Positions 2,760 to 59,251 of a DNA stretch of 64,000 nucleotides are shown piece after piece. The stretch's first letter is position 1. Every line of letters begins with the position of its first letter. The notes beneath the pieces are model-generated. The model was not told the origin of the DNA. It did not search any database and saw only the letters and a list, made by a program, of their open reading frames with translations. Origin of the DNA: Kalmusia sp. IMI 367209 (Eukaryota; Ascomycota; Dothideomycetes; Pleosporales; Didymosphaeriaceae); assembly GCA_027946365.1 (NCBI GenBank), contig JAPEUQ010000008.1, positions 2,070,234 through 2,134,233 on the forward strand. The letters are read 5' to 3'. The position numbers were made by a program, and so were the translations under genes.

Positions 2760-3025
2760 TATAAATAATACTTAGGTTAACTTCTACCTCCTCTAAACTA
2801 TCCTATAGGCTAGTAATCTATAAATCTACCTCTTTTTAATCTAACTCCACCTCTAGAACTATAGACTAATAATCCTCCTATTTATTAAAAACTCTTTCTA
2901 TTTTCGAAGCCTTACCACCCTAATATAAATAGTAGCTAATATATCTAGTGCTACCTTCTAAGCTTTCTTAATCTTATTTAGTTTAGCTTAAATTTTAGTT
3001 TAGGAACGACCAATAGATCGCACTA
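2760..3025 (-). pseudogene. Antisense accessory frame of element A
   Basis: Between the chromodomain and the LTR, the minus strand from about 3022 down to 2878 reads as a Lys/Arg-rich helical segment containing RVVRLRKQKEFL, with only TAA/TAG interruptions, and seems to continue in another frame to about 2760. The plus strand here shows no comparable frame. The RLRKQK..L pattern resembles hypothetical fungal proteins I have seen encoded near retrotransposons, but I cannot name a family. It is antisense to pol, downstream of it and inside the element, so it would need its own promoter. It could be a chance open stretch; the position and similar frames in G, K and E argue otherwise. Confidence 0.45.
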
Positions 3026-3383
3026 TAAGTAATTAATATAAGGTAGAATACTTAAATAAATTACTTACTCTTAGTTACTAAAATACTATTTACGTTATAA
3101 AAATATTAAACGCTAGATCTTATATAAGGCTTATAAGCCAACCTTTTTAGAGTATTATGAGGGGAAACGATACAATCCAAATTTAGCCTAGTATATTAAA
3201 AATAAGATATAGTAATAAACCCGCAACGACTAATTTTATTAGTAAGTATAAGACATTCGATAATTTTATAAGAAGGTATAAAGGGCGATAACGACCTAAA
3301 ACTAATAGAAACTATCCTACTAATATAGCTTTATCTTTATAACGGAACATTCTTCGGGCCAAAGAACTAAGAGGGGGAAATAG

Positions 3384-3819
3384 TATTATAACTACTATAC
3401 CATAATAGAATTACGATAATAATAACGTTAGTAGTAATAACTAATAGGATTAAAAGGACTAGTATTATAATCATAGAAATAATACTAAGTATAATATAGA
3501 CACGTGATATAATTATATAATAGCTCTATAGGCTCTATCTATAGAGCCCGTTAGAGCCAACTCTATAGGCTCTATCTATAGAGCCCATAGAGCCAACCCC
3601 AGATAGTAGTATATAGAGATAATAGATAACCACCGGTAATCCTTATTATTAATTCATTAAGTTCTCTTATAAGTAGTTTCTTATAGAAGACTATTATTAA
3701 TCCTATTAGTAATTAATACTTATAGTAGTTAATTAACGTTCACCCCTTATAATCATACAACCCTACACGCCCTCATTTCCACTTAACCCTTTAAGACAGC
3801 CTCACGGCCGCCCGTTACA
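3384..3819 (+). repeat. 3' LTR of chromovirus A
   Basis: A purine-rich tract (agagggggaaa, ending near 3380) precedes a segment starting tattata, read as a mutated TGTTATA, and ending gttaca at 3819. TG...CA-type ends after a polypurine tract are the expected 3' LTR structure. Only one LTR is in the window, so the ends are inferred rather than proven by a pair. Confidence 0.55.
3524..3596 (+). repeat. Tandem hairpin repeat inside LTR A
   Basis: Two tandem units (37 and 36 bp) each carry ggctctat-ct-atagagcc, an 8-bp perfect stem with a 2-nt loop, at 3531-3548 and 3568-3585. Each is followed by agagccaa. In an LTR this could be a protein-binding or RNA-structure element; the function is unknown. 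Confidence 0.85.
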
Positions 3820-3836
3820 CGTACTTAGTTACCTTA

Positions 3837-5027
3837 TAATATTATCTTTTATTAAATTTTCTACTCCTTTATTATTATTTTTCTTTATTTTACTATCCTT
3901 TTAAAATTATTCTTAAGATAGTGATTATTTTTAAATCTACTTATATAACTTCTAACTATAATAGGTAATTCCTTATTATATTCTAGTAATTCGTTAATAT
4001 CTATATTAGAAGTTCTAAAATTATAACTATCTATAATATTATTAATCTTATTATTAAACTTTTTAGTCGTATTTATATTAAAAATATATAATCTAAAAAC
4101 TATTACTTACTAGATTTAAAACATGTGCGAAACATTTAATATCTACTATAGAATTATTATATTTAAATTTAAAATTATTTTTAATAAATCTATAGTATTA
4201 TTAATAGAACTAGCATTATCTCTAGTAACTCCTAATAATTTATTATTTAAATTATAGTCTAATAAGACGTTTTCTATAATAGGATAAATATTACTACTAC
4301 TATAACTATCTAAATCATTTAAATCCTCAAAACCTATTAAGTAACTTTCTAGTTTAAATTTATTATTATAGAAATGTATAGTAATAGCTAGAAAATCTAA
4401 ATTATTACTAGATTTCCATTCATCTAAAGTAATTAAAAATTTACTATTATTATTATTAATTTTATTTTTAATTTATTAATTTCTATATTATATATATTAT
4501 TTAATTCTTTTCTAATAGTTTCCCTACTAATAGTAGATAGATTATCTTTTAAATATTTTAATAGATTTTAAAACTATTACTATCTATTAAACTAAAAGGT
4601 AAGTTATTATTAATAATAAATTTTAAGATTAAATTTTTATATTCCTCTTTATTAAAAAATATAAAACTAGGTCTTTTTCTTACTAAGTTATTACTACTAG
4701 AAGTACTAAAATAATTATTAATCATATTTATACTACTAGTTTCATCTATATTAGAACTATTTTCATCTAAATTAGGCTCTAAGTAAGTAAAATGCTTATG
4801 TTTAAAATGACTATTTAAATTAGTAGTATTAAAAGGCCACGTACTTACTTTATTATATTCACATAAATTACAGCTAGCTTTAAAAGTTCTAGTTTCATTT
4901 TCTTTAAAAGGTAAAACCTCTAATTTAAATTTTCTAGAACTAAAAATATTAGCTAATTTAGAAATATTAGGTAATTCTAAATTAGGATCTAGTAGATCCT
5001 CTTTGTAAAATAAAATTTAGAAGCCAT
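3837..5027 (-). pseudogene. hAT transposase, N-terminal half (copy A)
   Basis: This is a cut-and-paste DNA transposase remnant. Reading the minus strand, an ATG at 5027-5025 (MASKFYF) is followed by a frame change and then a BED zinc finger: CNLC near 4875-4864 and LNSHFKHKHF near 4815-4788. The hAT core follows: TLDEW (first catalytic Asp codon at 4424-4422), LESYLIGFEDL, NKLLGVTRDNAS (second Asp at 4220-4218) and CFAHVLNLV near 4130-4105. The C-terminal dimerisation region is missing, because the copy stops at about 3837 next to LTR A. A few frameshifts interrupt it, but most of the frame is open and CA/TG dinucleotides survive, unlike its neighbours. Codons are extremely A/T-biased. Copy B (18368-19483) supplies the complementary half. 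Confidence 0.85.
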
Positions 5028-5204
5028 AATAAATAAAGATAAATAAAGATAATAAGATAGTATAGTTATAGTTATAGTTAATAATGTAAAAACTATCAAC
5101 TTAAAATTAAAGAACTTAAAGAAGTATATATATATATCTCTCTAGGTTAAGAGCTTAATAATCTATATTATAAATCAAAATTATAGAATTTACTAAATAA
5201 TAAC
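5028..5204. other. A/T-rich spacer with short simple repeats
   Basis: The spacer lies upstream of the hAT frame. It contains runs of aaataaagat and tagttatagt-type short repeats and a (ta)n tract near 5130. I see no gene. It may include the hAT 5' untranslated end, but no inverted terminal repeat could be paired because the other end of this copy is gone. Confidence 0.5.
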
Positions 5205-5745
5205 TTAACTCCATGATTTATTATAAATCCTTATTAAATAATAGCCTAAGTCCGTAATTTATTATAAATCCTTATTAAATAATAGCCTAAGTCCGTAATT
5301 TATTATAAATCCTTATTAAATAATAGCCTAAGTCCGTGATTTATTATAAATCCTTATTAAATAATAGCCTAAGTCCGTGATTTATTATAAATCCTTATTA
5401 AATAATAGCCTAAGTCCGTGATTTATTATAAATCCTTATTAAATAATAGCCTAAGTCCGTGATTTATTATAAATCCTTATTAAATAATAGCCTAAGTCCG
5501 TGATTTATTTTAAATCCTTATTAAATTATATCCTAAGTTCGTAATTAATTATAAATCCTAGTTAAATAATAGCCTAAGTCCGTGATTTATTATAAATCTT
5601 TATTAAATAATAGTCTAAGTCCGTGATTTATTTTAAACCCTTATTAAATTAAATCCTAAGTCCGTAATTAATTATAAATCCTAGTTAAATAATAGCCTAA
5701 GTCCGTGATTTATTATAAATCCTAGTTAAATAATAGCCGAAGTCT
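5205..5745 (+). repeat. 41-bp tandem satellite, about 13 units, with a higher-order trimer
   Basis: A unit reading ttattataaatcc...gcctaagtccgtga repeats every 41 bp (junctions at 5338 and 5379, for example). The first units are nearly identical. From about 5500 three variants alternate in fixed order (ttttaaa..., attataaatcctag..., ttataaat...), and the trio occurs twice, giving a 123-bp higher-order unit. There are no spacers, so this is not a CRISPR array. Confidence 0.93.
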
Positions 5746-5924
5746 ATAATAAAAATTAATTAATTAATTACTAGGTTTAATACTTTATAGAAAGAATAAT
5801 ATATAAGTCTATAGGTTTCTTTATTCTATTCTAATTAAGTTAACTTTTAAGTTACTTATTACATTATCTACTACGTTATCTACTACGTTATCTACTATTT
5901 ATTACTATATCTAGCCTTACTACG

Positions 5925-7958: not shown

Positions 7959-8006
7959 ACGTGGTTTATAAGTAAGTTAGTAGCCTAAGTAAGTTAGTAG
8001 CTTTTC
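7959..8006 (+). repeat. F1 left terminal inverted repeat with subterminal direct repeat
   Basis: The inverted repeat pairs with 9758-9805. Inside it taagtaagttagtag occurs twice, at 7969-7983 and 7986-8000, a 17-bp period. Such doubled motifs are candidate transposase binding sites. Confidence 0.88.
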
Positions 8007-8224: not shown

Positions 8225-9665
8225 AAAGCGTATAAATATATTAGAAGAGAAGGTAATTATTTAAGAGGTACTTAAGTAGAGTACATATAGTATAGCACCT
8301 ATAAAGGATAGAGTACGTAGTATAGTAAATAGATTACTATAAGCACGAGATAGTAAATCTATTAGTAAAAACTAGGTTAACAACTTTATTAAATAAATTC
8401 TAGAGCTGAAAACCCATTAGACTCATCTATATAATAGCCAGCGTACTACCTATAAAGACCCAGCGCTTATACGATACTAGTTAGCACTAGTTTAGTTAAT
8501 AAAGTAGAAGTATAATATTCTAAATAAGAATATCTAGAATTTTAATAAGACTGGCTTTATAATAGATAAGATATCATCTTAGCTAGTTATTATAAGCTTA
8601 GAAGGATCTAGTAAGAAGAAATAAATATAGCCTAGTAACTATAAATAGATTACCCTAGTATAAGGCGTCGCTATAATAGGGTTATAATTCTACCTTTTAT
8701 TATCTTTATAGATAAGGTGTTAATCACCACCTAGTTTAAAGATCTATCCCTAGAATAGATTATTACTATTAGCCCTAATGGCTAGATTAATAATAACCTT
8801 ATACTTATCTAGCTAGACTACTTTAAGAAGCATTCGCAGTGCTAGCGCGTAGAAGGATACTACTTACTTATTATTAATAGCTATAAGAGTTACTACTCTA
8901 CCGATTTCTAGGATTACTATAAGGAGAAGAATATTATTACTTTCTATATACCTTCTTATTTATTATATCTATTATAGTCCTTAGATGTTACCTGCTTCGC
9001 GCCGTTAAAGCGCGCGTATAATAATAAGATCTCAGCCTTAATATATAATTATACCTACTATATTAGTAAAGATACCTTTCTTTTAGCCTTTAAAAATACT
9101 TTTAGTAAGGCATTTATTAAGGATAATATTTACATAGGCTTTTAAGGCGCTAGGCTAGTCCTAATTAACCTAGAAGCTATATTATTAAAGCTTAATATAA
9201 GACTATATACGTTTACTCCACCCCAGCGTAATAACGTCGTATAAGAGGTAAAGACCCTATATAACGCTAAAAAATTAGAAGTATAAAGTATATTTATTTA
9301 AATAAGAATAAGAAATTACCTAGGGTTCTTAGTAAGCTCTCTAGACGAATCAATTAGGCAGTTAAATAAAGATACTTAGTAGATAGTATATAATATAGAG
9401 TTAATAAAGGAAAAAAATAAATAGCCTTAAAAGCGCTATTAATATAATAGCGAAGCATAAGAGCCGTAAATAGTAATATATATAAATAGAGGAGACGTTT
9501 ATAGTTAGAGAGGTAGATAAATTAATTACTATAAGAGAGGGTAGTAGTCGTAGTAGTAATAAGAAGCCGGTAAAGAAGATTTATACTAAGAGATACTATA
9601 GTTATTATTATGAGAAAGGATATAATTCCTGTATCTATATAGTAGAGATAGAGGACTTAGATAAT
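8225..9665 (+). pseudogene. Fot1/pogo-family DDE transposase remnant
   Basis: The N-terminal DNA-binding part is legible around 8330-8480 (SKSISKN-stop-VNNFIK). The catalytic core opens with NFNKTGFIIDKISS at 8538-8579; the family has NFDETGF, so the first catalytic Asp is now Asn. QGVAIIG follows. A frame change lies near 8680-8690. The core continues with ITISPNG, YYLLIINSYKSYYS (family LLILDGHGSH) and SLDVTCFAPLKRAYN around 8980-9020, where the last Asp survives. A decayed CCHC-like knuckle (YSYYYEKGYNSCIY, 9597-9638) sits near the C terminus. The frame is crossed by TAA/TAG at Gln/Trp sites. Identification as DDE_1, Fot1 type, is firm; it is inactive. Confidence 0.92.
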
Positions 9666-9757
9666 AGTAACAACTCTAAGGAATAGAATAGTATATAGTA
9701 AACTACTATTAGTTTTAGTAGTATTAAGATACTACGCTACGATAGTGGGGCGCTAGC

Positions 9758-9805
9758 AAAAAGCTATTAACTCGCTTAAACTATTAACTTACTTATAAAT
9801 CACGT
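9758..9805 (-). repeat. F1 right terminal inverted repeat
   Basis: This is the reverse complement of the left end with only transition differences. The outermost bases acttataaatcacgt mirror acgtggtttataagt. Confidence 0.88.
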
Positions 9806-10383
9806 TAAGGGCTTTAGTATACACCTTATTATCTATAGGGTAGATAATAGGACTATAGATAATAGATTTAGATGGTTTAGTAAGGTCGATTCTAATATAA
9901 AAATTATTTATAAATATAATAGAATCTAGATAATATATTAATAATAATTATTTATATAAGATTACGTAGCGTACCTAGCCTAAAAAAGAAAGAGAATATA
10001 TTAGTAAGGCGGATATTAACGTTATAGTTAATAAGGTAGAGAGATAACGGTTACTACTTATAATAATCTTAATAGATGGCAACTTATCATAACTATCACT
10101 ATAATAAAAGTTATTATTAAAAGATAGTACGCGTACCGTGTCCTTTCTTTAATAAATTAAATAACTTTTAATTAGAGCGTGCGCCAAGCCTTACTTTATA
10201 ATCTAGTGTAATAATCTTATAATCTAATCTAATAATCTAATAAGTCTAATAGAAATATAATATCTTTACTATTAATACCTTTTAAAATACCTTTTAAGTT
10301 AGAAAAGTAGGAGGAACTGCTACTATCTTTTTAGTTTACTATCCTTCATACTACGTATAATCTTTCGATGATTAAAATATATA

Positions 10384-10395
10384 TAATCTAGACTA
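10384..10395. repeat. Target duplication, right of X1
   Basis: taatctagacta is identical to 7303-7314. Confidence 0.75.
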
Positions 10396-17478: not shown

Positions 17479-17483
17479 ATAAT

Positions 17484-21699: not shown

Positions 21700-23637
21700 G
21701 GCCATTTACTAAAAGTAGTGCCCCTAACGTACTCTAATACTAGTTCCTAATAATTAATAATTACTAGGACTATTAAGTATCTAGATAACCCCTCTAATAA
21801 CTACTATATTTAGCTAGCTATAAGCTATTACTATTAGACAAACTGTTCTCAACGATTAAAGAAGCCTATAAGTAGTTATAAAAGAAGTATAATAAAGATA
21901 AGATATATTATATTATTAAAATAAAGGAGAAGTATAATTAGAGAGATTATAAAATAGTCTTAGATACTACTAAAACTACTAAGGGTATAATTAAATATTA
22001 GAGATATTAACCCTACGCCTTCTAACCCTAAAAGTATTATAGAAATATACTAGAAAAATTATTATAACTTTAATCTTTAAAAAAATAACTATAAGCGTTA
22101 TTTTAAATAGTTAATTATCTACTTCCTATAAAATAGTCTAAGGTAGACTTTATAATTATCTATATCTTTAAAGTAATACGGACAACCTAAACTATAAAGA
22201 TAATATTTTAATAAAATTAAAATCTAATCTAGTAAAAGACTTAGGAAGAGCTAAAGAAAAAAATATTAAATATACTAGATACTAAAGATAAATAGTACTA
22301 GTTAGCATATAATAGCCTTAAAAAGTATAAATAATATTTAAATTAAACTCTAATAGACCTTTTAGACTATATCTAGAACTATTAAAAGGAGCTAAAGATA
22401 ATAGATAAAGATATATATATCTTAGATTATATAGGATGTCTAAGTAATAGTATTACTATAAAATTATATTTATTATTTATTAAACGTTATAATACTATTA
22501 CCCTTATTAAAGAGTAAGCTATAAACGTTTATTAAAGTAACTAGCTTTTAAGACTACTAAAGAATGATAAAAATAAGAAAGATAAGATAAAGTAGAATAA
22601 ATCCTACTACTCTAATTTTAAAGGGGATGATAAGCCTCTAAAGAAGAATAGGAAGAATAATAAAATATAAAGTGGCGCTAATAGAATTAATAAAATATAA
22701 AGTAACTCTAAAAGTACTTCTAAAAACGTTAAATATTATTATTATAAAAATAGGGCTACTATAAGCCTAAGTATCTTAATAAAGATAAACCTATAGCTCT
22801 AGAATTAAAAATATTAAAAAGAAGTCTAAAGATTTAGGAAAAGATAAAGAGTAAAAGGGATTATAGCTATTTTTATTACCTATATAAATCTAATAATCAG
22901 TTACCTAGAAAAGATTCTAAATATTAAGGACTATAGTTATCTATTTAATTAGTTATATAACCCACTGAAAGATATAATAACCCTAAAGATAAAAGTTAAT
23001 AAAAAGGATACTATTAATACTCTAGTAGACTTAGGCTTTTTATTAAATCTACTTTTAGCTAAATTAGCGAAGCGGATGAATATAAAAGTTATTTCTCTTA
23101 TAGACCTATTAGTAAGTACTATAAATAGGTTAGATATAAAGATATATAGCACTACTATTAAGGAGATAGAGTTAATTAACTCTAGAGGTTATAAATAGGT
23201 TTAGGAGATTCTATTTATAGTAGCTAATCTTTATAAATATAAGATTTTCTTTAGTTTATCTTAATTAGACTAAGAAAATTTAAAACTAAATATTACTACT
23301 TACTATATTTTATTTAGGAAAAGATTAAGTAAGGATAAAAGTTTTAAAAGAATAATTATAAAAGGACTTAAAGACTTTAATTATATTATAAAAAAACTAT
23401 ATTTAGTAATATATATCTATATAATAGATATAATAGATTAAAAGATTTTAAGTAGATCTAATAGATATAAAGAGTACTTACTTTTAAAAAAATATTTAGA
23501 GTTTACGTATCTAGCCTTAGAAGAGGATACTAGGTTATACTAGCGTACGGTCTAAGTAATCTATATATTAATCTTAAGTCTAATATCTAACTACTATACT
23601 TCCCTATATATAATCTTTTAGTGTCTAAATTAGAGAC
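21700..23637 (+). pseudogene. gag-pro: G gag, zinc knuckle and protease
   Basis: A capsid-like region precedes a Lys/Asn/Ser-rich stretch and a decayed CCHC knuckle around 22727-22790 (KYYYYKN, where Tyr stands for Cys). The aspartic protease is legible from 23019: TLVDLGFLLNLL, aligned to the family's LVDSGASLNLL, then AKLAKRMNIKVISL. The segment to 23637 is the linker with PLYN..SKLE, the start of the RT domain. It is interrupted at 23637 by H and continues at 30865. A 67-codon open frame on the minus strand over the protease (23152-22949) is a shadow. Confidence 0.8.
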
Positions 23638-23642: not shown

Positions 23643-24124
23643 TATTAATAGTACCTATTAATAAGCCAAAGAATTACGCGTAATAAGTAATTATAGGCGA
23701 ACCTATAATAGGTATAGTAAATATAATAAGGTTCTTAGATAAGTTAGTAAAATTAGTAACTTAGTAATTATATAATAATATCTTACTAAGAAGAGTTAAA
23801 ATAAGAAAGGTATTAGAATAAAAATAATATCCTATATTAAGAGTAATATCCTACTAAAATTAGGGATATTAGGAAAATAGATAGGATATCTAGGACTAGA
23901 GAAAGGATATATAAGAAGGAAGATTTCTAGTCTTTATTAGATTTCTTATAGTTAACTTAAATTATTAACTTATCTCTTATCTAGATTAATATAAGATAAT
24001 ATTAGCTTTAATATACTTTATTAAAGTAGTATAAGCTTTATCTATTACCTAATTAAATAGTACTAGACCTCCTAAAGCCTACCTTACTTAGCCTACTTAA
24101 GATAAGTAATCCCCATGTGTAATA
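23643..24124 (+). repeat. 5' LTR of H (482 bp)
   Basis: Pairs with 30381-30859. Differences are nearly all transitions. Confidence 0.93.
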
Positions 24125-24359
24125 CTTTAACTACCTAATAGGTCCTAGTTATATATTAAAATAATAGTAATTAATATACTATTAAGTAGCTTATATATAG
24201 CGACTAGTAGTAATATTATAGTATTAACTACTAACTTAGTAGTACTACTAGTAGCGTAGACGGAATAAATTTAAACGCTTATAGCTTAAGTAGAGTAGTT
24301 AATAGTAGTAACTCTATAGGGACTACTAAAAGTATCTATTAAGGTTCCCTTACTAGAAA

Positions 24360-25140
24360 AGTTTAATAGAAATATAAAGAAAATTAAAACCTTCTATACT
24401 AGTATAAAACTATATTTTAAATTTTATACTAATAGTTTTAGAATTAATTAAGTAAAAATTCTTATGGCCGGACTTTATATAATAGGAAAATTAATAGACT
24501 AGCTTTAACCCCTTATAGAAGACTACCTAAATAACGAAGCTAATATAAAAGAATATATAAATAATATAAAGAAAATATTCTAAAGCTAAAGATATTTTAA
24601 AAGAAAAATATTAATTATATTTAGAGAAGTAGATGTAAAATACTAAATAGAATATAAAATCTAGTTACTTTACTAAAGATAGTTAGCTAGAATATATACT
24701 ATAGACTTTAGATACCTAGTAACTAGGATTAATTAGAATAATATATTACTTAGAGTAGCCTACTATAATAGACTAAAAGAGACTATTAAGGATAATCTAA
24801 TCTATTATAAGAAGACGGAAACCCTAAATAAAATAATTAAATTATCTATTAAAATTAATAACCGTCTCTACAAAAGATAATAGAAAAGAAAAGAAAAACC
24901 TCTTAGTCTAAATTAGTATAACCTAAGTACTAAAAAAATGATTAAAATTAAGTATAATTAAGATAGTAACGTAATAATAATTAATAAAATATAGGAGAAA
25001 AAAAGGAATAGAGACCTAAGTGGGAATATAGAGGAATAAGTAAAGAAGAGAAATAATAATACTTTAAAAATAAGGCCTACTTATTCTATAGAGAAATAGG
25101 CTATTTTAGGAAAGACTATCTAAAGAAAAATAAAAAAATA
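24360..25140 (+). pseudogene. gag: H gag with zinc knuckle erased to tyrosines
   Basis: The capsid region reads IKTFYTSIKLYFKFYT, then VKILMAGLYIIGKLID, as in Ty3/gypsy gag. The nucleic-acid-binding knuckle at 25078-25119 reads Y-L-F-Y-REIG-Y-FRKD-Y, exactly the C-x2-C-x4-H-x4-C spacing with all four zinc ligands now tyrosine. TGC/TGT and CAC/CAT become TAC/TAT through the single transition RIP makes. It would not bind zinc. Confidence 0.85.
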
Positions 25141-28100
25141 AAGATTAAAGTAATATATATTATAATACTCTAGACTACTCTAATAACTAAAGAATATTAA
25201 TATTATTTTACTAAAGTATAGATTCTAGACTAACTTATAATATAACTATATTAGATATATAGGAGTTAGGAATATAAAGGTAATAGGTGTGAAGTAAAAC
25301 TATTATTAATAGAGTAATATTAAAAGAACTCTATAAATAGCCCTATAATAATAGGGACCTATAATAAAGTATAACTTAACTTAAATCTAGATATATACTA
25401 ACTATATAAACCTACTATAGACCTAATATAAAAAAGAAAATAAATACTAGTATTATAAAAAAGAATACTAAGAGATAGAGATATAACTAGGATACTATTT
25501 ATACGTCTTTCTATAAAATAATGAATGTAACGTTAAGTTATACTATATATATAATTACGATAAATGGCACTAGAAATATATAATTCTATAATAGGATAAA
25601 TACTATAATAAATAATATAAAATATATAAGAATAATAAATATCTTATAGACTAGTTATCTATTAGACTAGTAGCTATAAACGCGATTTTATACTAAACCT
25701 AAGGATATAGATTAGGTATTCTAATAATAAATATAAATAGCTACTATAAAATAAATATTAAGTAATATACTATATATTTTATACCTTAGAAAAGGAAGAA
25801 GTAATCTATAGTGGGTTACTAGAGTACTAACACCTTAATAAAAGGGAATATATAAAGAATAGCTATTAATAGTATAAATAGACTAATTATAAATATATAA
25901 CTAGTCTATAGATCTAATATATTATATAGATATAATATACTATTATATAAAATAAAATTAGAACTATATAAAAATTACTAGAAGGGACTAGATTACTAGA
26001 AGTGGAACTAGAAATAAAACTCCTAGACCTTATTTAAGAAGATTTAGAAGGATGGGTTATATATAGAGAAGAATTCTAATAAATAGAAAAGATACCTATA
26101 CTAGAAATATTAGAATAAGAGGTATATATATAAATTATATAAGTATTCTACTACTAAGACGATTATAGTATACACCTATCTAATAAAGAAGGAAGTAGAT
26201 ACTTTCTATAAAAAGAAATAGAAGAATAAAAACTAAGATACTACTAGCTAAAGAGTCTTACTAGTAAGAGTATTATAAAATAGACTTAATTATAAATATA
26301 ATAAATATACCTACTAATAATAGTATATATATAAGGAAAAAAATATACATACTATTAAATAGTGAAATATAAATTATAATTATCTCACCCTAAGTAGTAA
26401 AGAAGTAAAGGTTACAATATAAAATAAAAAGTATCTAATATCTATTAGTCTAGCTAATAATTTAATAATAGAATATAGCTTAGAAAAATATAATTAAAGA
26501 TAGGAATAGTAACCCTATAGATTAAAAACTTTATAGAAAATAAAAGATACCTATTATAGATATAAAATCCTTAATATAATAATAGGATATGATTAGCTAG
26601 TTAAGTATAATCTAGATATTAACTAGTAAATAGTAAAAATAACTAAATGCTTAATAAAAGCTAGAGTTACATAACTATAAATAATATCTATAGTAGCGAA
26701 AATTAGAAAGATATTACTATAATAGATTAGGAAAATCTAAGAAAAAGACCCTTAATAGATAGAAGTTATATAGATACGAAAACTAGAGACTAAGGAAATA
26801 ATAAAAGCTTAACCTATAATTTCTAAAAAATATAAGAAATATAAAAAGCTATTTAAAGAATATAGTAAAATGGATTTACTAGAATATTAAGACTAGGATT
26901 ATAAAATTATCCTAGAAGAAGGTATAAAATTATATCTAAGACTAATATATCTATTATCTTATAATTAGTAATAAGAACTAAAAAGTATATTAAAAAGAAT
27001 ATTAAAAGGGGATTTATAAGAGTTAGTAAGAGTTTAATAGTATTACTAATATTATTTATTTTAAAGAAAATAAATAGCTATAGCTCTATATAGACTATAG
27101 ATAACTGAATAATATTATAAAAAGAATAGATACCTACTACCCTTAATATAAGAGCTTATAAAATAACTCTAAAAAGTAAAATAGTTTATAAAATTTAATA
27201 TATAAGATGATTACTATTAAATAAAAATTAAAGAAGACTATAAATAGAAAATAGTCTTTAAAACTAGATATAAACTATATAAATACGCGGTTATATCCTT
27301 TAGATTAATAAATATACTAGTAATCTTTTAAGTCCTAGTAAATAAGACCTTATATAAATACTTAGATATATTCTATATAGTATATCTAGACGATATATTA
27401 ATTTACTCTAAGGTATACTAGAGGAATATATTAAATATGTTAGAAAGTACTAGATAAAATAAAATAATATAACCTACTACTTTACTTAAATAAATATAAA
27501 TTCTACGTTAAGGAAATTAACTACCTAGGTTTCATTATTTTAAATTAAGGAGTGGCTATGAACCTAAAAAAGTATAGGTAGTATAAGAATAGCTAATACT
27601 AAAGACTATATAAAAGGTATAATTCTTCTTAGAATTTATTAACTTTTATTAAAAGTTTATTAAAGAATACTTAAATACTATAGTACCCCTAATAGAAATT
27701 ACTAAAAGGAAGTAGGCTATAGTTAAAGTAAAGAATAAGAAAAAGTATTTAAAAACTAAAATAGCTATTCCTAGAAGTACCAATATTACAGATAAATGAC
27801 CTAATAAAAAGAAAATAAGTAGAAATTAATATATTAAACTATATACTGGCTATTATACTATTATAAGAATATAAAGATAGGAAATAGAGACTAGTATTCT
27901 ACTATATAAGAAAGTTCTTAGAGTAGAACTAAATTATAATATTTATAATAAGGAACTACTAGTAGTAGTTAAAGCCTTTAAATAATAGAAAGTATAGTTA
28001 CTAGGAGTACTAGAATAGATAGAAGTCTTTTTAGACTATAAAAACCGAACTAGCTTTACTATAACTAAGAAACTAAACTAACGATAAATTAGATAGTTAG

Positions 28101-29760
28101 AAATACTAGCTAACTTTAATTTTAAAATCTATTATAGAGCCGGAATATTAAACGGCGTTATAGATATATTTAACTAAAGAAGTAATCTAATAGAAAATGA
28201 TAATTCAACTATATATAATATAGTATTAATATATAATAAAGATAATATACTTAGATATAACTAGACTATAGAGTATATTAAGCTTACCAGTATTACTCTA
28301 CTAAAAACTAGAAATTAAAAATTACTAAGACTATGTAAGATTGCCAGAAAAGTAATAAAAATAATATAAACTAGTAGAATATCTTAGAAAAGCTAAAAGA
28401 GATAGCTTAGAAAGGATAGTAGTAGACGACTACTACGTAATTAAAGTAATATAATAACTTTATAAATCTAAGAAATGGGGATATATAGGGATAGATAAAA
28501 TAATTTAGTGACTTAGCCATAAATATAATATCTAAAACCTAAGGATATAAATAATAGAAATTATAGATAACTATTTAGCCTACTTAAAAATAAGCCTAAG
28601 AGATATAAGTCCTATAGGTTATTATAACCCTTATAACCGCCTTAGAGACTATAGACTTATATAATAATAGACTTTATAGTAAAGCTCCTAGTATTAATAA
28701 AACCTAGATTAAATAAAGTATATAACTTAATACTAGTAATTATAAAATAATTAACTAAAGTCGTATACTTTATCCTAATAATAGAAGTAATTATAGCCTT
28801 AGAAATAGCTTATAAAGTAAAACGAACCCTTATTATAAACTATAAAAACTAGAATAGATTTTTATAGATAAGAATAAACTCTTTATATCTAAGTTTTAAA
28901 AATATTACTAGCCAAGCTAGGTATTAAAAGAAAACTCTCGATGAGCTTTCACCTATAAACGGACGAATAAATGGAAAGGATTAATTAAGTTCTAGAGTAG
29001 TACTTACGAATATATATAAATAAATTATAGAATAATTAAGTAAAACTATTATCTATAATATAGTTAATATATAATAGTTTATAATTAAGTATAACTAAGT
29101 AGTTATTATATTACGTAAATTATAGATATGAGCTAACGGTATATTAAAACCTATAGGACGTAGTTAGTATCACGACCTTAGTAGAATATAAAGTAAGACT
29201 TATAAATAAACTATATTAATAGCTATATATAAATATTAAAAAAAAAGAACCTTATAACGTCTAGACAGGTGAATAAAAAAGAATTAAGGACTAACCCTTA
29301 AGAAGGGGATAAAGTCTTCCTATTATAAAAAAATTTAAAGACTAAAAGATCTAGTAATAAGCTTAATAGTTTATAGATAGAACTATTTAAAATTATTAAA
29401 GAAATAGGACTAGTAAACTTTAAACTTAAGCTACTATAAGGAACCTATATATATCTAATATTCTATAAATCTCTACTAGAACTAGTACTAATTAATACTA
29501 AGCTAAAAACTATACTAGAACTTAAAGATAAGGAATATAAGGTTAAAGTAATTAAGGATCTATGGAAATTTAAAAGTTAGTAGAAATACTTAGTTAAGTA
29601 AAAAGGATAGCTAAAGGACTAAAATACCTAGGAACTACTATAAAATCTTATAAATTATAAGAAACTAGTATTAAACTACTATAAGTAGAACCTATAAAAA
29701 TAAATTTAAAAGAAGGAACTAAACTAAGATTAGAAAAGATAGAAAATTAAAATAAAAAAG
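25140..29760 (+). pseudogene. pol: H pol: protease, RT, RNase H, integrase, chromodomain
   Basis: RT carries an intact VYLDDILIYSK at 27380-27412, preceded by KIKEDYKQKIVFKTRY-like and VISFRLINI segments. RNase H ends near 28085-28160 with NFKIYYRAGILNGVID. The integrase core lies around 28660-29010 (IDFIVKLLVL with the first Asp, later SFHL-stop-TDGR-stop-ERIN). A GPY/F-type region around 29370-29480 (KLLQGTYIYLIFYKSLLELV) precedes a chromodomain at 29535-29700 (EYKVKVIKDL, KYLVK-stop-KG, where the stop replaces Trp). The protease is not clearly seen. TAA/TAG codons make it dead. Confidence 0.88.
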
Positions 29761-30380
29761 AAATTAAGGAAAGAGAATTTAACCTATAACTAGCCTAGAT
29801 TAGTTAATAATTTAAATAGTAGTAGTTTAGAAATAGTAGTAGTAACTATATTCTTTAAGGTCTCTCTTATTCTAAATAATCTATAGAAGACGCTACGCGA
29901 AGATTATAAAAGACTAGTATTTACTTAGCCTCCTTAATAGTAAATAATTCATGACGAAGATAAGTAGTTTCTATAATAGTAATAGTTTAACACTCTTTAA
30001 TAGTAAAAGCTTAGTCTTCTTATAATAACGTTCTACTTAAACCCTTTCCTACTTTTTCTCTAGTACCTAAAGACTATATTTAGAATAAATAGTTAGATAA
30101 CTAGTATAATAACTAGATATAGTATTAATAAAGTACTATAAATCTTTCTCTTTATAATAAGTATATCTATAAATTATTTTAAGATTCCGGGAAATAATAT
30201 AGGACGTACATTCTTAATAAGATATAACTAAAGATTTAGGGGCTTTAGGTATAGTTAGGAAGGCTTATAAGATAAATTAGAAAGATAGTAGTAGTATATC
30301 TTTATAAATACCTAGTAGAAGAACTAGTAGTATAATAAAGACTAAATAATATTAAAATAATTATTATAAAAAGGAGTAAG
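29760..30380. other. H region between chromodomain and 3' LTR
   Basis: About 0.6 kb of non-pol sequence. A short minus-strand frame near 30040-29900 is suggestive, but I cannot support a gene. The polypurine stretch lies at its right end. Confidence 0.4.
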
Positions 30381-30859
30381 TATTAATAGTATCTATTAAT
30401 AAATTAAAAAATTACGCGTAATAAGTAATTATAGGCGAACCTATAGTAGATATAATAGATATAATAAGGTTCTTAGATAAACTAATAGAGTTAGTAACTT
30501 AGTAGTTATATAATAATATCCTGCTAAGAAGAGCCAAAATAGAAAAGGTGCTAGAATAAAATAATATCCTACGCTAAGAGTAATATCCTACTAAGATTAA
30601 GGATATTAGAAAATAAATGAGATATCTAGGACTAGAGAAAGGATATATAAAAGGAAGGTTTCTAGTCTTTATTAGATTCCTTATAATTAACTTAAATTAT
30701 TAACTCATCTCTTATCTAGATTAATATAAGATAACGTTAGCTTTAATATACTTTATTAAAGTAGTATAAGCTTTATTTATTATCTAATTAACTAGTACTA
30801 GACCTCCTAAAGCCTACCTTACTCAGCCTACTTAAGGTAAGTAATCCCTATATATAATA
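30381..30859 (+). repeat. 3' LTR of H
   Basis: Pairs with 23643-24124 and is followed by the gttta target duplicate. Confidence 0.93.
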
Positions 30860-30864
30860 GTTTA

Positions 30865-41699: not shown

Positions 41700-43611
41700 A
41701 TATAAATCTAATTAGGATCTAAATATATTATTTAGTACTAAATAATATTAGATAATAACTATTTATAACTATCTATTAATATTATCTATATTTAGTTAAG
41801 AATATATTTCGTCTAGTTAACACCGTAGTTAAAAGACTAGAAAGTAAGTTATATACTAGATATACTAAAAAGAGGACCTAATAGCGCTAATTAGCGCCTA
41901 AAGAGATATATTAACTATAACTAACTCTTTAAAAACTAATCCTTATCTAAAGCCTTATAAGTATAATTAATATTATAGAAATAGAGCTTCTATTCTCTAG
42001 AAATCTAGGAAAACTAGTATTATAATAAACCTTAACTTACTTATTAATATTTTATAGAAATTTTTTAGTTAGGAGCCCTTTAGACTTAGACTTACTAACG
42101 TACACATTTATAATAGAAATAGAGAGTAAATAAGTAAAAAAATACTATAACTTTTATTTTTAATAAAGACGCTTATATCTAGTATTAGGGTTAATATAAG
42201 GATTTATAGAGTTTAAACCTTCTAAAATATTAAAAGTAGAGAGAGTAATACTATACTTAAGGTTAATTTAGTATATTCTAAGTAGATTACCACCCTATAG
42301 TACTAGTTAACGCCTAAATAGCCCTAGAAAGAGCTAAAAGTAGTATTTACCTTCTTAGAGAATTTATTAGTATAGCTATTAATATAATTATTCTTAAACT
42401 TTATCTTATACTTCTAACTAACCTTAGAGTAGTTATAACTATCTACTATAATACTAGATTATATATATTAATCCTTTACGTCCGTCTTACCATTATGAAG
42501 ATGAAAGTGAGCGTTAAATCTATCCTTATAAATAATATATAGTACGCGCTAGTAAAGACTATATAAAGTAGTCTTAATCTTATAAGTAAAGACCTTAAGG
42601 TCCTTTCTAAAAGTCGTTACGTTATCTTCTAATAAAGAAGATATAATTTATAATATAAATCTATTATAAATATTAATAATATCTTTAATCTTTATAAGAG
42701 TATTAAGCTTATTTATTCTAAGCTATATAACGTTAGTTAAGACCTAATAGTATTATTTAGCGCCCTCTACTACCTAAAGGAGTAAAACTTACTATATAGT
42801 ACTTCTTATCTCTAAGATAGTATATTTAGTAGATATAGTATATTTTACCCTAGACTTTATTTATAAAGAATAGTTTTTATTAATTAATATTTAGTATTAT
42901 TTATTATTAGTAAATTCGCCCTTAGAGTAGTTACTAAGGCATTTAATATATATAAGCTTATAGTTAATAACTATTATATAGATATTAAGGTGATTTTAGA
43001 GAGATATTAGAAATAATTAGAGACTAATAGTGCTAGTTATTACTAGATAAAAGTAGAGGTGGGAAATTAAATAGATTTTAATAATAAAGAGAGTACGTTA
43101 ATATTATTATTTATAATTAGCTATAATTAGTTACTACTTAATATAAAATAGATTAGAGTAATACTTATAAAAGGGAATAAAAAAGTAGAGATTATAGTAA
43201 ACTAGAATACCCTAATTATATTAATAATGGCCTAGTAATACTATATAGTAATAATATAGTATATTTATAAATTTTAAAAAAAATGGTATTAGGGAGAAGG
43301 AGAAATTAAGGTAGAAAACTACTTATAGGTCTATATAGCCTAAAACTTTTAATATATAGTTATAGTTTTTTACCTTTACCGCCACTATAGGTAGTAAAAG
43401 GAGGTGAGAGACTAAAGAATAGTTTTTTTACTCTAGCTCTTACCTTAAGTTTAGAAGTACTACCCTATTAACTAGATAGAGAAATCTCCTTTATATAACT
43501 TAAATAGATACCTAGGTATTAGTTACTATAGCTATTACTAGATAGGACCTAATAGGTTAGTTAATCTCTAATCTACTCTCTTAGGATAAAAGAGACTCTA
43601 GGAGGGGATAA
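41700..43611. other. G accessory region between pol and 3' LTR
   Basis: About 1.9 kb that belongs to G, since it lies between the E3 target site and the polypurine tract (aggagggga, 43599-43609). There is no gag or pol similarity. The best reading frame is on the minus strand (separate entry). The part from 42900 to 43600 gives no convincing frame on either strand. Confidence 0.65.
42215..42862 (-). pseudogene. Antisense accessory frame of element G
   Basis: On the minus strand one frame runs for about 215 codons, with stops only as TAA/TAG. Legible parts are SKSRVKYTISTKYTILEIRS, EDNVTTFRKDLKVFTYKI, DRFNAHFHLHNGKTDVKD, NSYTNKFSKKVNTTFSSF and YYRVVIYLEYTKLTLS. The plus-strand frames over the same bases are broken far more often. 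It has a mixed hydrophilic composition, unlike random A/T translation. I do not recognise a domain. It lies downstream of and opposite to pol, as in A, K and the copia family E. It might be a captured gene or an element-specific accessory protein. Confidence 0.5.
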
Positions 43612-49343: not shown

Positions 49344-51330
49344 TACCCCCTAGATGAGCTTCGTCAGCAGTAAGTCTACAAGGAGTCTATAATAGTAAGC
49401 CTATAATCTAGTAGTAGTAATAAACCTATAAATATATAAGACTCTATTATAATAATTATAATTAGTTATACGTAAGCTCCTTATTAGTTATCCCTAATAA
49501 TTATATACTTTCTTTAAATATTTCTAACCGCCTCTGTACGTGATCGCGTAAATGGTGACTAGGATAATAAACTTATTATAATCTTATACTTTATTTTCTA
49601 CTTTCTTTAACCTCTCTTTAATTATTACGCTAAATCTCTATTTTTATACTTCTTTAGTTTCGTTTTATTTTCGCTCACACTCTTTAAGATCTTAATTATA
49701 GTATATAGTTATCTCTAGACTCTTTATTTTACTAATCTTTTTATCTAGATAACTCTATAGAAAACGCGTGGTCATCCTTATAAATCTATAGTAATCTTAT
49801 TCCTATTACGCTTATTATCTAGTTCTAAGGAAGGTCCTTATAGTTCTAAGATTCTAAGTTAGTCTAACTTATACCTTATTATACTATTAAAAGAGAACTC
49901 TAAATTAGAAAAATAGTAAAGATACTTCTTCGTTAATTAAAAGTAAAGTAATTCTATATAAAAGAAAGATATTAAGAAGCGTTTATAGTACTCCTCGTAA
50001 AGAGTCTTATTAGAGATATATATAAAGTATAATTCTAGTTAATCTAATAATATCTATTTTAATCTTATTAATAGTTCTATTTATTATTATAGTTACTCTT
50101 TAGGTTATAATTATATTAAAGTATAAGTTTCTTTTAAGATTATATGATTTTTTCCACTAATTATCTAGTAGCCCTAAGGATCTTAAGCCTTATATAGCTA
50201 AATATCTTTAAGTTTATTAAGAGGGTTAGACTATAAGTTATTTAAATCTCCGGTTTCGTTTATTAGGCTAATAAATCTTAGAATAAGGATATTAAAGAGT
50301 TATATAATTCTATAAAAGTTATCTTTAACTATATTTATTATAGTCTTCTATATAAGGTTCCCTAGCTCTTACCTAGTAATACTAAGAACTTTAATTAGGT
50401 TAAGATTTCCTTTACTTCTAAGGGCTTACTATAGTTAAAGATTTCTCCTTATATTAAAATCTCTCCTAAGTTCTAGCCATACCATAATCTAAATCTACTT
50501 ATAATAAGACTAGAGATATAATTATAATTAGTAATAGAGATAAGTTAAGTAAAGAAGATAATTATAAGACTACCTCAGTTCTAGTTATTAAGAAGAGTTA
50601 TAAATATAATTCTACTTCTAATACTAATAAGATTTATTCTACTATTAAGAAAATTTATAAGAATATTTTTAAGATTAATTTAAACCTTCTAGAGGAGCTC
50701 TTTAGTAATTAAATTATAAAACCTAAAATTACTAAAGAGTAGCTAAAAGCTATTTATATAGCACTTTAAAGTTAAAAATAAATAGAGAAATATTTTTATT
50801 TCTACTCTAATTACTGTTAAGACTCCCACTAATAGTTATCTCTAACATGATCTTAGTAACGTTTAAGAAATTTAAACTTAGAGTTCCCTATTATTAAATA
50901 GTCTATTAAATCTAATAATTAATTCTATACTCTAAATAATAAGTTTTATTTAGAAATCCTCCTATTATTCTAGTTAAAGCTTACTTCTTTAGTAAACCTT
51001 CTTATATAAGTAACTTTATTACTTCTAACTATACTCTGAGCTAGGGTGTTCCCTTTTCCTATAGTACTTAAGTGATCTATAGTAGTCTTATAGATATATA
51101 GAAACGTACTAAGGCCTATATACTACTTAATAAGTTCTTAAATCTTTTTAAATAGTTAAATAGAGCTTTCACTCTTCCTTAACTTTAGTTAATAGATTTT
51201 TTTATGCTCTTATAGTATTATATTACCCTTAAGCTATATTAGTAGATGATATTCTATAGAGAGCTTAGCTTCTCCTATAATAATTTAATTATGGTTTCTT
51301 CATTAATCTTTCTATTATATAATAATTAAA
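49344..51330. other. E4 accessory region between RNase H and 3' LTR
   Basis: About 2 kb downstream of pol (pol runs leftwards). It is collinear with the same region of E3 and E2, so it is a fixed part of this copia family. Sense frames are stop-rich. The opposite, plus strand shows longer frames, the clearest at 50488-50769. Confidence 0.65.
50488..50769 (+). pseudogene. Antisense accessory frame of copia family E
   Basis: The frame starts around SKSTYNKTRDIIIISNRDKL, continues through VLVIKKSYKYNSTSNTNKIY and KKIYKNIFKINLNLLEELFS, and closes at TAA 50767-50769. In-frame interruptions occur only at 50710 (TAA) and 50740 (TAG). It is Lys/Asn/Ser-rich and hydrophilic, while the sense strand translates to Leu/Ile with stops. 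Frames further left (49900-50480) may be the upstream part. It is antisense to copia pol and inside the element. No domain recognised. Confidence 0.4.
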
Positions 51331-56400: not shown

Positions 56401-56453
56401 TATCTAAAGTATATAGGAGAACTTTCTATATTCTAAAGCGCTAGGCTTATAAC

Positions 56454-56660: not shown

Positions 56661-56665
56661 AATAA

Positions 56666-57051
56666 GAAATCTAGAGATAGCTATATATTATAATTAAAAT
56701 CTTAAAGAGCGTAAGCGAAAATAAAATAAAACTAAAAGAGTATAAAAATAGAGATCTAATATAATAATTAAAAGAGAGATTAAAGAGAATAGAGAAGATA
56801 AAAGTATAAGATTATAATAAATTTATTATTTTAGTTACTTATTTACGCGATCATATATAAGGCGGTTAAAAGTATTTAAAGAAGTATATATAATTACTAG
56901 AGATAACTAATAAGAAACTTATATATAACTAATTATAATTATTATAATAAAGAGTTTTATATATTTATAGACTTACTACTATTACTAGATTATAGACTTA
57001 CTATTATAGGTTTCTTATAGACTTACTACTAACGAAGCTCATTTAGGGGTA
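56666..57051 (+). other. E2 accessory region, remainder
   Basis: It resumes gaaatctagagatagc..., collinear with E3 41100-41487, and ends with the purine tract catttaggggta before the 3' LTR of E2. Confidence 0.8.
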
Positions 57052-57255
57052 TATTATAGATATAAGGCTTTAAGTTAAACTTTAAGTAATAGAATAATTA
57101 TAATCTAAAAATTTTAATAATCTAAAATATTAAACGTTTAGAGTTTTATAATTAGAAGATCTCACGATCTATAATTCTATCTATCTAGCTTATATTTTTA
57201 TATAGCAATCTAATCAATTGCTTACTAAAAATAATAATCTAATATTAACTCTATA
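57052..57255 (+). repeat. 3' LTR of E2
   Basis: 204 bp, highly RIP-mutated relative to the other family LTRs. It ends ttaactctata and is followed by ataat. Confidence 0.9.
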
Positions 57256-57605
57256 ATAATTTATTATTATATAAAACTTTAAAAGGAAATTAAGTAAACT
57301 AGCTTTAATCTATTCCTTCTAGGAGTTTTATAGACTACTAGTATAAGCTTAAAATATTTTACTTATATTAATAAAGTATATATAGCGTAAGTATTAAGTC
57401 TTTTAGATATATTATACGAATATAGTAATATATTTAATAAAGAAGTAGTATCTACTCTTCTAAAATTTAAAGAATTTAACTATATAATTCCTATTATAAA
57501 GGGGAAGGAATCTTTCTATAGACCTTTATATAATCTTTTAATACATAAGCTATTAGAATTAAATATAGTAGTGAGTATTCCTTAAGTAATAATAAGATTA
57601 AAATC
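57256..57605 (+). pseudogene. Ty3/gypsy fragment (protease-RT linker)
   Basis: The plus strand reads LDILYEYSNIFNKEVVSTLL, then KFKEFNYIIPIIKGKESFYR and PLYNLL, matching the gypsy pre-RT segment (F....A..LP......H.I....G..PPYRPLYNLS). It stops abruptly near the K LTR. It resembles the linker of G and H but is not obviously the same family. It has no ends, so it is a truncated scrap left by later insertions or rearrangement. Confidence 0.7.
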
Positions 57606-57643
57606 TATCTTTTACCCTCTATCTTCCCCCGCGTTTTAAAGGG

Positions 57644-57966
57644 TGTTATGTTAGCGCGTTCCTAACGCCTCGCTTACGCAGCGCTTTTAGTAAGGAACCA
57701 TTATATAATTATATTATTATGGGATTATGTACTTTACTTCTTATAACTATCCCCTCTTTTACTAATGATTATCTTAGCTACTTATAATTTACTTTTTATA
57801 TAATAGATTTATAGTACTATAATGGGGTAATACTGTCACCTCACCGTCGCTCTATAGTGAGGCAGTTACTATATCTATTATTATAGTAAAGTAGAGGTTG
57901 GTGAAATTACTATTATTATTAGGGATAATAGTAGTAAGGAGAGAAATATATATTCTTAAGCCTCTA
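57644..57966 (-). repeat. Probable 3' LTR of K
   Basis: On the plus strand it begins tgttatgttagcgcg and ends cctcta. Beyond it lies ccgcttctatctc(t)n, whose reverse is a long purine tract, as expected next to a 3' LTR. The partner LTR is outside the window, so the ends are tentative. Confidence 0.5.
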
Positions 57967-58041
57967 CCGCTTCTATCTCTTTTTTTTTTTTCTTTTTAGC
58001 TTAAATTCGTTATTAACTCCTTACGTCTTACTATTATTATT

Positions 58042-59251
58042 ATGTCGTTTAACCCTCTCCTATCTATTACTACGACCTTAGTATCTCTAGATACTTCTAT
58101 TATAGATTTACTCTTTAATTATACTTCGCTGTTGCTAATCCTTTATATAGACTCCTCTCTCTTATTATCTTATCTTAGAGGTAAAACTCTAGTAGTCTTA
58201 TTATCTCTACTATTTAAAGCGCATCGGCGCTAAAGAATAAAAAGTATAACGTCCTCCCCTATAAGAAGTATACGTATTACGTGAGCTTATATAAACCTTA
58301 TAAGTCTATCTCTATTAATTTTATAAGAGAGGTAAATACCCTACTCTACGCCACTAAGGCCCTTATGCTTCCTGGTGATGATAACGCCATTATATATAGG
58401 GCTCTCCTAGACTCTTATAAAGACTATAAGGCCCTAATAGAGGATACCTTATAAAAGGAGGCGAAGTGGGATGGTATCTATAAGCTAATTAGAATAGAGG
58501 TTATCCTTCTTTAAATAGATATAACTAATTATTTTACTACCACTACTAAAGGTATTTTAGATATCTTTTACTTTTTAATATATCCTTTCTCTTTTATTAG
58601 GTATTCTACTATTGTTTTAACGTTGAGTAGTTTAGGTAGACGCCTCTTAACTCTATTAATATATAGACTAATCTTTTATCTATCGCCTCTATATTACCTC
58701 CGTCTCACTCTCCTATTACCCCCCTTATTAAATATTATTAAATTATTACTTTAGGAGGAAGCTTCCGCTTCTTCTCTATTAACTTTAAGTAGTAGCTCTA
58801 CTAATTTATAGTTAAGTAATACTAACTTACCGCTAGAGGAATAAGGAGGAGGAGAGGTAGATTAGGGGGTAGTAGTTATACTAAGCCTAATTCCTATGTT
58901 TTATTTCACCTCCTATTCTACCCTTTATCCTATTTCTATCTGGATCCTTGTGTTTCCGCCTCCTTTCTACTCCTCCCTTAGTAGTATACTGCGTTGGGGT
59001 TAGTACTCTAGTAAGTCTTTATAAATAGGCGCCGCTTATAAAGCTACCGCTTCTATAAGGAAGTAAAAGTGTAGCGATAGTACGCTATCTATAAAGTATA
59101 TTAAGAAGGCCTCCTCTACTAGCTAGTAGAAGAAGAAGAAGAAGGATTTAGCGTTCTTAGTTTTAGTGCCTAAGGCCCTAGCTCCCACCAGTGGTAAGGG
59201 CAGGGGTAAGGATAAGGGTAAAGATAAGACTAAAGCCTAAGTTACCTTATA
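58042..59251 (+). pseudogene. Opposite-strand accessory ORF of element K, unidentified
   Basis: An ATG at 58042 opens 63 codons (MSFNPLLSITTTLVSLDTSI...). Another frame then dominates from 58242 to 59251, about 335 codons with roughly fifteen TAA/TAG and no TGA. Legible parts are KKYNVLPYKKYTYYVSLYKP, INFIREVNTLLYATKALMLP, DDNAIIYRALLDSYKDYKAL and a Ser/Lys/Gly-rich tail (KKKKDLAF, TSGKGRGKDKGKDKTKA). A basic KG(R/K)-repeat tail suggests nucleic-acid or chromatin binding; that is inference. It ends tail-to-tail with K pol. It may instead be gag of another element or an intron-containing captured gene. Confidence 0.5.

What the first reader, a model, noticed from the sequence alone, without database searches (positions are those of the whole stretch)
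2760..59251. Several LTR retrotransposon families carry an opposite-strand frame between pol and the 3' LTR
In chromoviruses A (2760-3025), G (42215-42862) and K (58042-59251) and in copia family E (50488-50769 in E4, collinear in E2 and E3), the pol-to-LTR region is 0.7-2 kb long, and its best-preserved reading frame is antisense to pol. The preserved frames are hydrophilic, and their breaks are TAA/TAG as expected from RIP on real codons. Extra antisense ORFs at this position are known for some plant Ty3/gypsy elements. Finding them in both gypsy and copia elements of one fungal genome would suggest repeated capture or a shared accessory function, such as silencing evasion or chromatin targeting. 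The proteins are not obviously related to each other by eye.
Basis: partly seen in the sequence, partly recalled or inferred. Interest (0 to 1): 0.75.

Follow-up and report, generated by a model that had tools for sequence, protein, structure and literature searches.

The report
Spliced antisense genes in fungal retrotransposons

Summary
Partly confirmed. The window is a heavily RIP-mutated contig end of Kalmusia sp. IMI 367209 (Pleosporales). A second chromovirus, M (a RIPed fragment lies at window 57258-57540), has the same layout: a three-exon, 249-aa antisense gene with database homologues in Paraphaeosphaeria and Alternaria (51-63% identity over 59-77% of it, E to 7e-54). K and M proteins share a six-cysteine motif, C-x2-C-x10-C-x7-C-x2-C-x6/7-C, plus VP (hhalign E 1e-4), so the genes are probably related, not captured separately. 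Family A shows a hint of a similar motif. In copia E and in G the antisense frames are not demonstrated, and the frame named in A is not supported. The general kind is known (brtn in Botrytis Boty elements; antisense ORFs of plant gypsy elements). Introns, cysteine motif and sharing between families look new. Function is inferred: an antisense transcript from the 3' LTR side encoding a nuclear regulator of the element.

The parts
57551..57760 (-). 3' LTR of chromovirus K (about 210 nt; pol is on the - strand)
   Evidence: matches of full-length copies end at or near 57551; LTR pair of a full copy, L044 566-774 and 7278-7487
58042..58101 (+). K antisense gene, exon 1 (ATG at 58042), RIP-damaged in this copy
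   Evidence: un-RIPed copies mapped to window columns
58102..58150 (+). K antisense gene, predicted intron 1 (49 nt)
   Evidence: GTAGGC..GCTAATC..GCGCAG in 5 of 6 un-RIPed copies; joins the ATG frame to the cysteine frame
58151..58577 (+). K antisense gene, exon 2
   Evidence: open in 2 of the 5 un-RIPed copies modelled; RY periodicity 58310-58609 p=2e-4, uncorrected; this window copy is broken by RIP stops and a frameshift
58202..58301 (+). six-cysteine motif C-x2-C-x10-C-x7-C-x2-C-x6-C-x2-VP (place in the window, where most Cys are mutated)
   Evidence: un-RIPed K copies L046-L048, 3 of 6
58578..58630 (+). K antisense gene, predicted intron 2 (52-55 nt in un-RIPed copies)
   Evidence: GTATGT..CTAAC..TAG in 6 of 6 un-RIPed copies
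58631..59240 (+). K antisense gene, exon 3 (Pro/Ser-rich, ends in a Lys/Gly-rich tail; stop at 59238)
59349..60490 (-). K pol, C-terminal part: integrase, Tf2-1-like SH3, chromodomain
   Evidence: Pfam rve, SH3_Tf2-1, Chromo on the un-RIPed copy L046; tblastn to window 60239-59349
57258..57540 (+). RIPed pol fragment of chromovirus M, the second family with a predicted spliced antisense gene (gene seen in L053/L054, not in the window)
   Evidence: 77% identity to L053 8-289
3103..3204 (-). family A: possible six-Cys-like pattern antisense to pol, close to its 3' LTR; suggestive only
   Evidence: TGY in 3, 1 and 1 of 12 copies at 3174, 3135, 3126; TAY in 12, 12 and 11 of 12 at 3204, 3195, 3105
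   Evidence: sense frames cleaner in 12 copies, shared stop columns
50485..50709 (+). family E open frame antisense to pol, 75 codons; coding not shown

Best explanation
Chromovirus families K and M of this fungus carry an additional gene on the strand opposite to gag-pol, lying tail to tail with pol between the chromodomain and the 3' LTR. The gene starts about 280-360 nt inside the 3' LTR, has three exons, and encodes a protein with a six-cysteine, probably zinc-binding, module near the N-terminus and a highly charged tail (Lys/Gly-rich in K, acidic in M). Supported by computation: the layout, open reading in un-RIPed copies (complete in M, with private breaks in K), splice signals in both families, protein-level conservation of M across genera, and a shared Cys module. 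Inferred: an antisense promoter in or next to the 3' LTR makes a transcript that the host splices; because the element's own RNA is the opposite strand, these introns are not spliced from it and survive retrotransposition; the protein enters the nucleus and binds nucleic acid or chromatin to regulate the element (expression, integration or silencing), in the manner of other antisense accessory genes of retroelements.
For: Un-RIPed K copies L045-L049 and L052, GC 0.56-0.58 against 0.20-0.31 in ten RIPed ones. Fewest stops in the antisense frame. K introns: 49 nt in 5 of 6 copies and 52-55 nt in 6 of 6; M introns 51 and 50 nt in L053, the second also in L054. Intron-signal matches: M 3 and K 2 on the gene strand, 0 on the opposite strand, shuffled means 0.085 and 0.045. 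M protein of 249 aa has six database relatives: Kalmusia, two from Paraphaeosphaeria, Alternaria and two without organism, 51-94% identity over 33-77% of the query. Their models support the junctions: P0001 crosses intron 2, P0002 and P0004 cross intron 1, P0006 diverges at intron 1 as an unspliced reading would. Six real Cys with this spacing: in 4 of 71 sequences held, all K or M, and in 0 of 1500 simulations of each region. K to M: hhalign E 1e-4, probability 57.5, 34% over 53 columns; the Alternaria protein finds three K copies at E 0.017-0.037. Both families are chromoviruses.
Against: No transcript was seen; all introns are predictions. Single shuffles reached 4 (M) and 3 (K) intron-signal matches, as many as observed or more. 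No dN/dS could be made: copies within a family differ mainly by RIP or private indels, and the pol control is equally uninformative. None of the 5 un-RIPed K copies modelled reads unbroken to the shared terminal stop, 2 of 5 read through exons 1 and 2, and L052 lacks the intron-1 pattern and was not modelled; private small indels abound, perhaps assembly errors. The Cys motif is unbroken in 3 of 6 un-RIPed K copies and 1 of 2 M copies; of six relatives P0004 and P0006 have all six Cys, P0002 has Tyr at two of the six, and P0001, P0003 and P0005 lack the module in their annotated form. K alone has no database relative (the first was limited to lengths of about 90-285 aa, the second capped at 7992 candidates). 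No Pfam match over its cut-off in the antisense proteins; the AlphaFold model is poor (mean pLDDT 49), so zinc binding rests on spacing alone. Whether the Paraphaeosphaeria and Alternaria genes lie in retrotransposons was not testable.
Confidence: 0.72

Rival explanations
1. A host gene (for example a fungal zinc-cluster regulator) was captured once in antisense and is carried as cargo without any role for the element.
For: Intron-bearing antisense genes look like a genomic capture; the Cys spacing recalls the fungal Zn2Cys6 class (spacing recalled, not from a call).
Against: The 1.2 kb region is matched over at least 1100 nt in 17 of 28 places of the genome (the rest are fragments); two chromovirus families share the module, and M relatives occur in other genera: long retention. 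No host paralogue was found with the Alternaria protein: its 10 matches are four in M copies L053 and L054, three in RIPed M copies (identified) and three in K copies.
Confidence: 0.15
2. The antisense transcript, not the protein, matters (dsRNA, silencing or interference with sense transcription).
For: PMC7264820 discusses this for plant antisense ORFs (passages).
Against: Protein-level conservation across genera and a shared Cys module.
Confidence: 0.08
3. The open antisense frames are chance in GC-rich DNA (K, M) or in AT-rich DNA after RIP (A, E, G).
For: Both strands of un-RIPed K have long open frames; stop origin does not single out the frame. For A, E and G this stays quite possible.
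Against: For K and M: introns, homologues of M, Cys module.
Confidence: 0.05
4. Repeated independent capture of unrelated antisense genes by gypsy and copia elements of this genome.
For: Antisense frames at the same place in several families; E frame open in 16 copies.
Against: K and M are related; no coding evidence for E, G and A.
Confidence: 0.07

Closest known systems
brtn, additional antisense gene of Boty-like Ty3/gypsy elements of Botrytis cinerea (Zhao et al. 2011, Virology 417:248; the paper itself not seen, only cited in passages of PMC8365987, PMC7264820 and PMC4227169)
   Same: Antisense additional gene in a fungal gypsy element whose gag-pol has a chromodomain (passage in PMC4227169); a Monilinia transcript resembles BRTN (passage in PMC5987419).
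   Different: Sequence relation, introns and Cys motif of BRTN unknown to me; none of the six proteins returned for M carries a Botrytis name (two give no organism).
Antisense additional ORFs (aORF-3R) of plant gypsy elements: Grande gene23, RIRE2, Retand with the TRP28 domain
   Same: Antisense, between pol and the 3' LTR, own antisense promoter in Grande, nuclear localisation reported for some (passages).
   Different: No TRP28 match here; the word intron does not occur in the two papers searched; Retand is a non-chromovirus lineage, K and M are chromoviruses.
Spliced antisense regulator HBZ of HTLV-1 (mentioned in PMC11963269, passage; its splicing recalled)
   Same: Antisense gene, nuclear; expression from the 3' LTR side (antisense promoter of HTLV mentioned in PMC7264820). 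Works-like analogy only.
   Different: No sequence relation claimed or tested.
Fungal Zn2Cys6 (GAL4-type) DNA-binding domain
   Same: Six cysteines in two C-x2-C pairs.
   Different: Spacing between the second and third Cys is 10, not 6 (consensus recalled), and the Pfam model does not match.

Membership tests
chromovirus (K) | integrase with C-terminal chromodomain, LTR-flanked | tested here: met
   Pfam rve, SH3_Tf2-1, Chromo over cut-off; LTR pair in L044
chromovirus (M) | integrase with C-terminal chromodomain, LTR-flanked | tested here: met
   Chromo in L054 (E 3e-15) and SH3_Tf2-1 in L053 (E 6e-21) over cut-off, rve just under it; LTRs 221 nt, 97.7% identical
antisense additional ORF of LTR retrotransposons (aORF-3R) | between pol and 3' LTR, opposite to gag-pol, in many copies | tested here: met
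   K; M:
antisense additional ORF of LTR retrotransposons (aORF-3R) | antisense transcript | not testable with these tools
   no expression data
Retand-type aORF | TRP28 domain (PF04195) | tested here: not met
   no such Pfam match in K or M-family proteins
brtn of Boty elements | homology to BRTN protein | not tested
   BRTN sequence not at hand
Zn2Cys6 (PF00172) | C-x2-C-x6-C-x5..12-C-x2-C-x6..8-C (recalled) and profile match, in K and M | tested here: not met
   x10 in place of x6; no PF00172 match at E up to 10 or 1
Zn2Cys6 (PF00172) | same pattern in family A | tested here: inconclusive
   2-6-12-2-6 spacing fits, but only 3 of 6 positions show Cys in any of 12 copies; no profile search was made on the damaged frame
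copia element with antisense gene (E) | antisense coding frame between pol and LTR | tested here: inconclusive
   open frame of 75 codons, fixed stops after it, no family match over cut-off

The most novel reading that the evidence does not exclude
A family of intron-bearing antisense genes for a six-cysteine nuclear protein is an old, shared part of filamentous-ascomycete chromoviruses (K, M, probably A, perhaps brtn), reaching into copia elements as well, and acts as a regulator that lets the element manage its own transcription or the host's RIP and silencing: a fungal counterpart of spliced antisense retroviral regulators.
Probability: 0.15. Interest if true: 0.8.

Novelty: new variant of a known kind. 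Interest (0 to 1): 0.55.

Why it matters
Antisense accessory genes of retroelements are known from retroviruses, plant gypsy elements and one fungal family, mostly without known function. A conserved, apparently spliced version with a recognisable Cys module, present in un-RIPed copies next to many RIP-killed ones, gives a concrete gene to test for a role in expression, integration or silencing. It also warns annotators: one of these genes sits in public annotation as a hypothetical protein (N0V90_008102).

Tried and rejected
Codon-position test on non-RIP differences between RIPed and un-RIPed K copies: flat, and the pol control gives no usable signal. Indels in the K gene are mostly not multiples of three (18 of 139 are), as in pol (12 of 185), so they do not speak for a kept frame in these copies. 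Share of stops on Gln/Trp/CGA codons as a mark of the coding frame: does not discriminate. Scan for a Cys motif in RIPed copies only: it does not refind the true K motif, so its silence on E says nothing. Purine-periodicity profile: supports K and the E frame, ambiguous for G (p 3e-5 fits + mod 0 and - mod 2 alike), weak for A; windows overlap and p values are uncorrected. Comparison of the two M copies: all 107 differences counted are transitions, so no useful selection test. Protein searches with K: nothing. Viral contigs with the M family, K pol and the K protein: nothing; phage records with the Alternaria protein: nothing. PDB by sequence: nothing below E 1. AlphaFold model too poor for a fold search, none was run. 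The un-RIPed copia of contig C3 does not match E by tblastn. In one search several K loci were aligned in the wrong orientation; orientation and trimming were mended, and only the GC values and the comparison of the six un-RIPed copies are used. L003 was dropped because it is the same locus as L044.
Full report
WHERE IT IS. The window is the last 64 kb of contig C29 of a 42.8 Mb, 30-contig genome. A protein whose contig has the length of C29 (2134233) is registered for Kalmusia sp. IMI 367209, Pleosporales. GC is 0.17-0.34 per kb and CpA/TpG are strongly depleted, as expected from RIP; there is no ATG/GTG/TTG-initiated frame of 100 aa or more.

FAMILY K. Matches of full-length copies to 57300-60500 end at or near window 57551, and a full copy, L044, has LTRs of about 210 nt. 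Pol is on the minus strand and ends at about 59349 with a chromodomain. The 1.6 kb between pol and LTR is therefore part of the element. Six copies elsewhere (L045-L049, L052; C13, C25, C29, C10, C18, C12) are not RIPed: GC 0.56-0.58, against 0.20-0.31 in the ten RIPed copies used here. One search listed 28 matches (17 of them over at least 1100 of 1210 nt) and one search listed 42; I used 16 distinct loci including the window. In ten RIPed copies, frame + mod 0 over 58042-59251 has 192 stops against 314-590 in the other five. Intron 1 has the signals GTAGGC..GCTAATC..CAG in 5 of 6 copies, intron 2 GTATGT..CTAAC..TAG in 6 of 6. Exons 1 and 2 read through in L046 and L047, 2 of the 5 copies modelled; none of the five reads unbroken to the shared terminal stop. 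Private 1-7 nt indels look like assembly errors or decay; I cannot tell which.

FAMILY M. A search for the integrase SH3 model found un-RIPed or lightly RIPed chromoviruses besides K. One, L053, belongs to a family of which the window holds a RIPed pol fragment (57258-57540). It has 221-nt LTRs, 97.7% alike; its relative L054 has the chromodomain over cut-off, L053 the SH3 domain. Antisense to pol, between the chromodomain and the LTR, L053 has an ATG, three exons and two introns of 51 and 50 nt (GTAGGT or GTATGT, GCTAATA, AG), for 249 aa with an acidic tail. L054 keeps intron 2 by exact pattern but not intron 1 and bears transition changes, among them a stop. Three further, RIPed copies exist. 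The protein has relatives in public databases: Kalmusia N0V90_008102, two from Paraphaeosphaeria sporulosa, one from Alternaria alternata and two without organism, E from 1.8e-94 to 5.5e-22, covering 33-77% of the query. The annotated Kalmusia protein crosses intron 2 exactly as predicted here; Paraphaeosphaeria P0002 and the Alternaria protein cross intron 1; P0006 departs at that point as an unspliced reading would. These models were made by others. Not all agree with mine: P0003 lacks the Cys module, and P0001 and P0005 start after it.

K AND M ARE RELATED. Both carry C-x2-C-x10-C-x7-C-x2-C-x6/7-C followed by VP. With six real cysteines the motif occurs in 4 of 71 sequences held, all K or M (3 of 6 un-RIPed K copies, 1 of 2 M copies), and in 0 of 1500 simulations of each 3' region; P0004 and P0006 have it, P0002 with Tyr at two positions. 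Profile comparison gives E 1e-4 (probability 57.5, 34% identity over 53 columns), and the Alternaria protein finds K copies in the genome at E 0.017. The probability figure is modest; the spacing plus the same genomic position make common descent the better reading.

FAMILIES A, E, G. A has a 3' LTR from about 3380. E: frame 50485-50709 is open in nearly all of 16 aligned copies; purine periodicity agrees (p 6e-4 uncorrected); the stops after it are fixed; a Pfam match to ORF6C at E 0.0019 lies below its cut-off, and I give it no weight. G: two long copies with nearly identical stops. No un-RIPed copy of A, E or G was found: GC was checked in all 21 E and 14 G loci fetched and in 11 of the 56 places listed for A. 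Searches with RIPed queries could miss diverged copies. Their status stays open.

HOW IT PROBABLY WORKS. The antisense start lies about 280 nt (K) to 360 nt (M) inside the 3' LTR, so the LTR or its edge is the likely promoter. The sense genomic RNA carries the complement of the introns, which cannot be spliced from it, so an antisense gene can keep introns through retrotransposition. The six-Cys module is probably zinc-binding and, with a strongly charged tail, suggests a nuclear protein. Regulation of the element is inferred from position, conservation and the analogy with plant and retroviral antisense genes (passages of PMC7264820 and PMC11963269). None of this is shown experimentally.

WHAT IS KNOWN. 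Antisense additional genes are described in plants (passages of PMC7264820 and PMC11963269) and, by title and citing passages, in Botrytis Boty elements (brtn). PMC3248453, a survey of fungal LTR elements, has no occurrence of the word antisense in its main text. I found no description of introns or of this Cys motif in such genes in the listings and the passages I opened, which cover open-licence PMC papers only; Zhao et al. 2011 itself was not looked at.

Noticed in passing
window 4149-5016 (-): Two of the longest open frames of the window (152 and 108 codons) lie side by side; the first has a weak BED zinc finger match (E 6e-4, just under the cut-off), so this may be a hAT-like transposase in a less damaged stretch.
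   Followed up: partly
window 5067-5845: Tandem array of a 41-nt unit, 13 overlapping register copies, next to the BED-type frame.
   Followed up: no
window 23643-30864: A further likely LTR element (direct repeats 23643-24129 and 30381-30864, 90% alike) with a chromovirus pol match at 28914-29129, apparently nested in family G.
   Followed up: no
L044 and window 8640-9807: Copy L044 of K is inserted in a repeat whose uninterrupted counterpart is window 8640-9807, joining at 9213/9214: a filled and an empty site of the same repeat family.
   Followed up: partly
L045-L049, L052: Un-RIPed K copies coexist with many heavily RIPed ones in one genome; 3 of the 6 (L048, L049, L052) lie within 10 kb of contig ends, and those carry many small deletions that may be assembly errors.
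   Followed up: partly
window 22953-23195 (+): Open frame with a weak retropepsin-like match (E 0.0012, under the cut-off), probably the protease of a gag-pol remnant.
   Followed up: no
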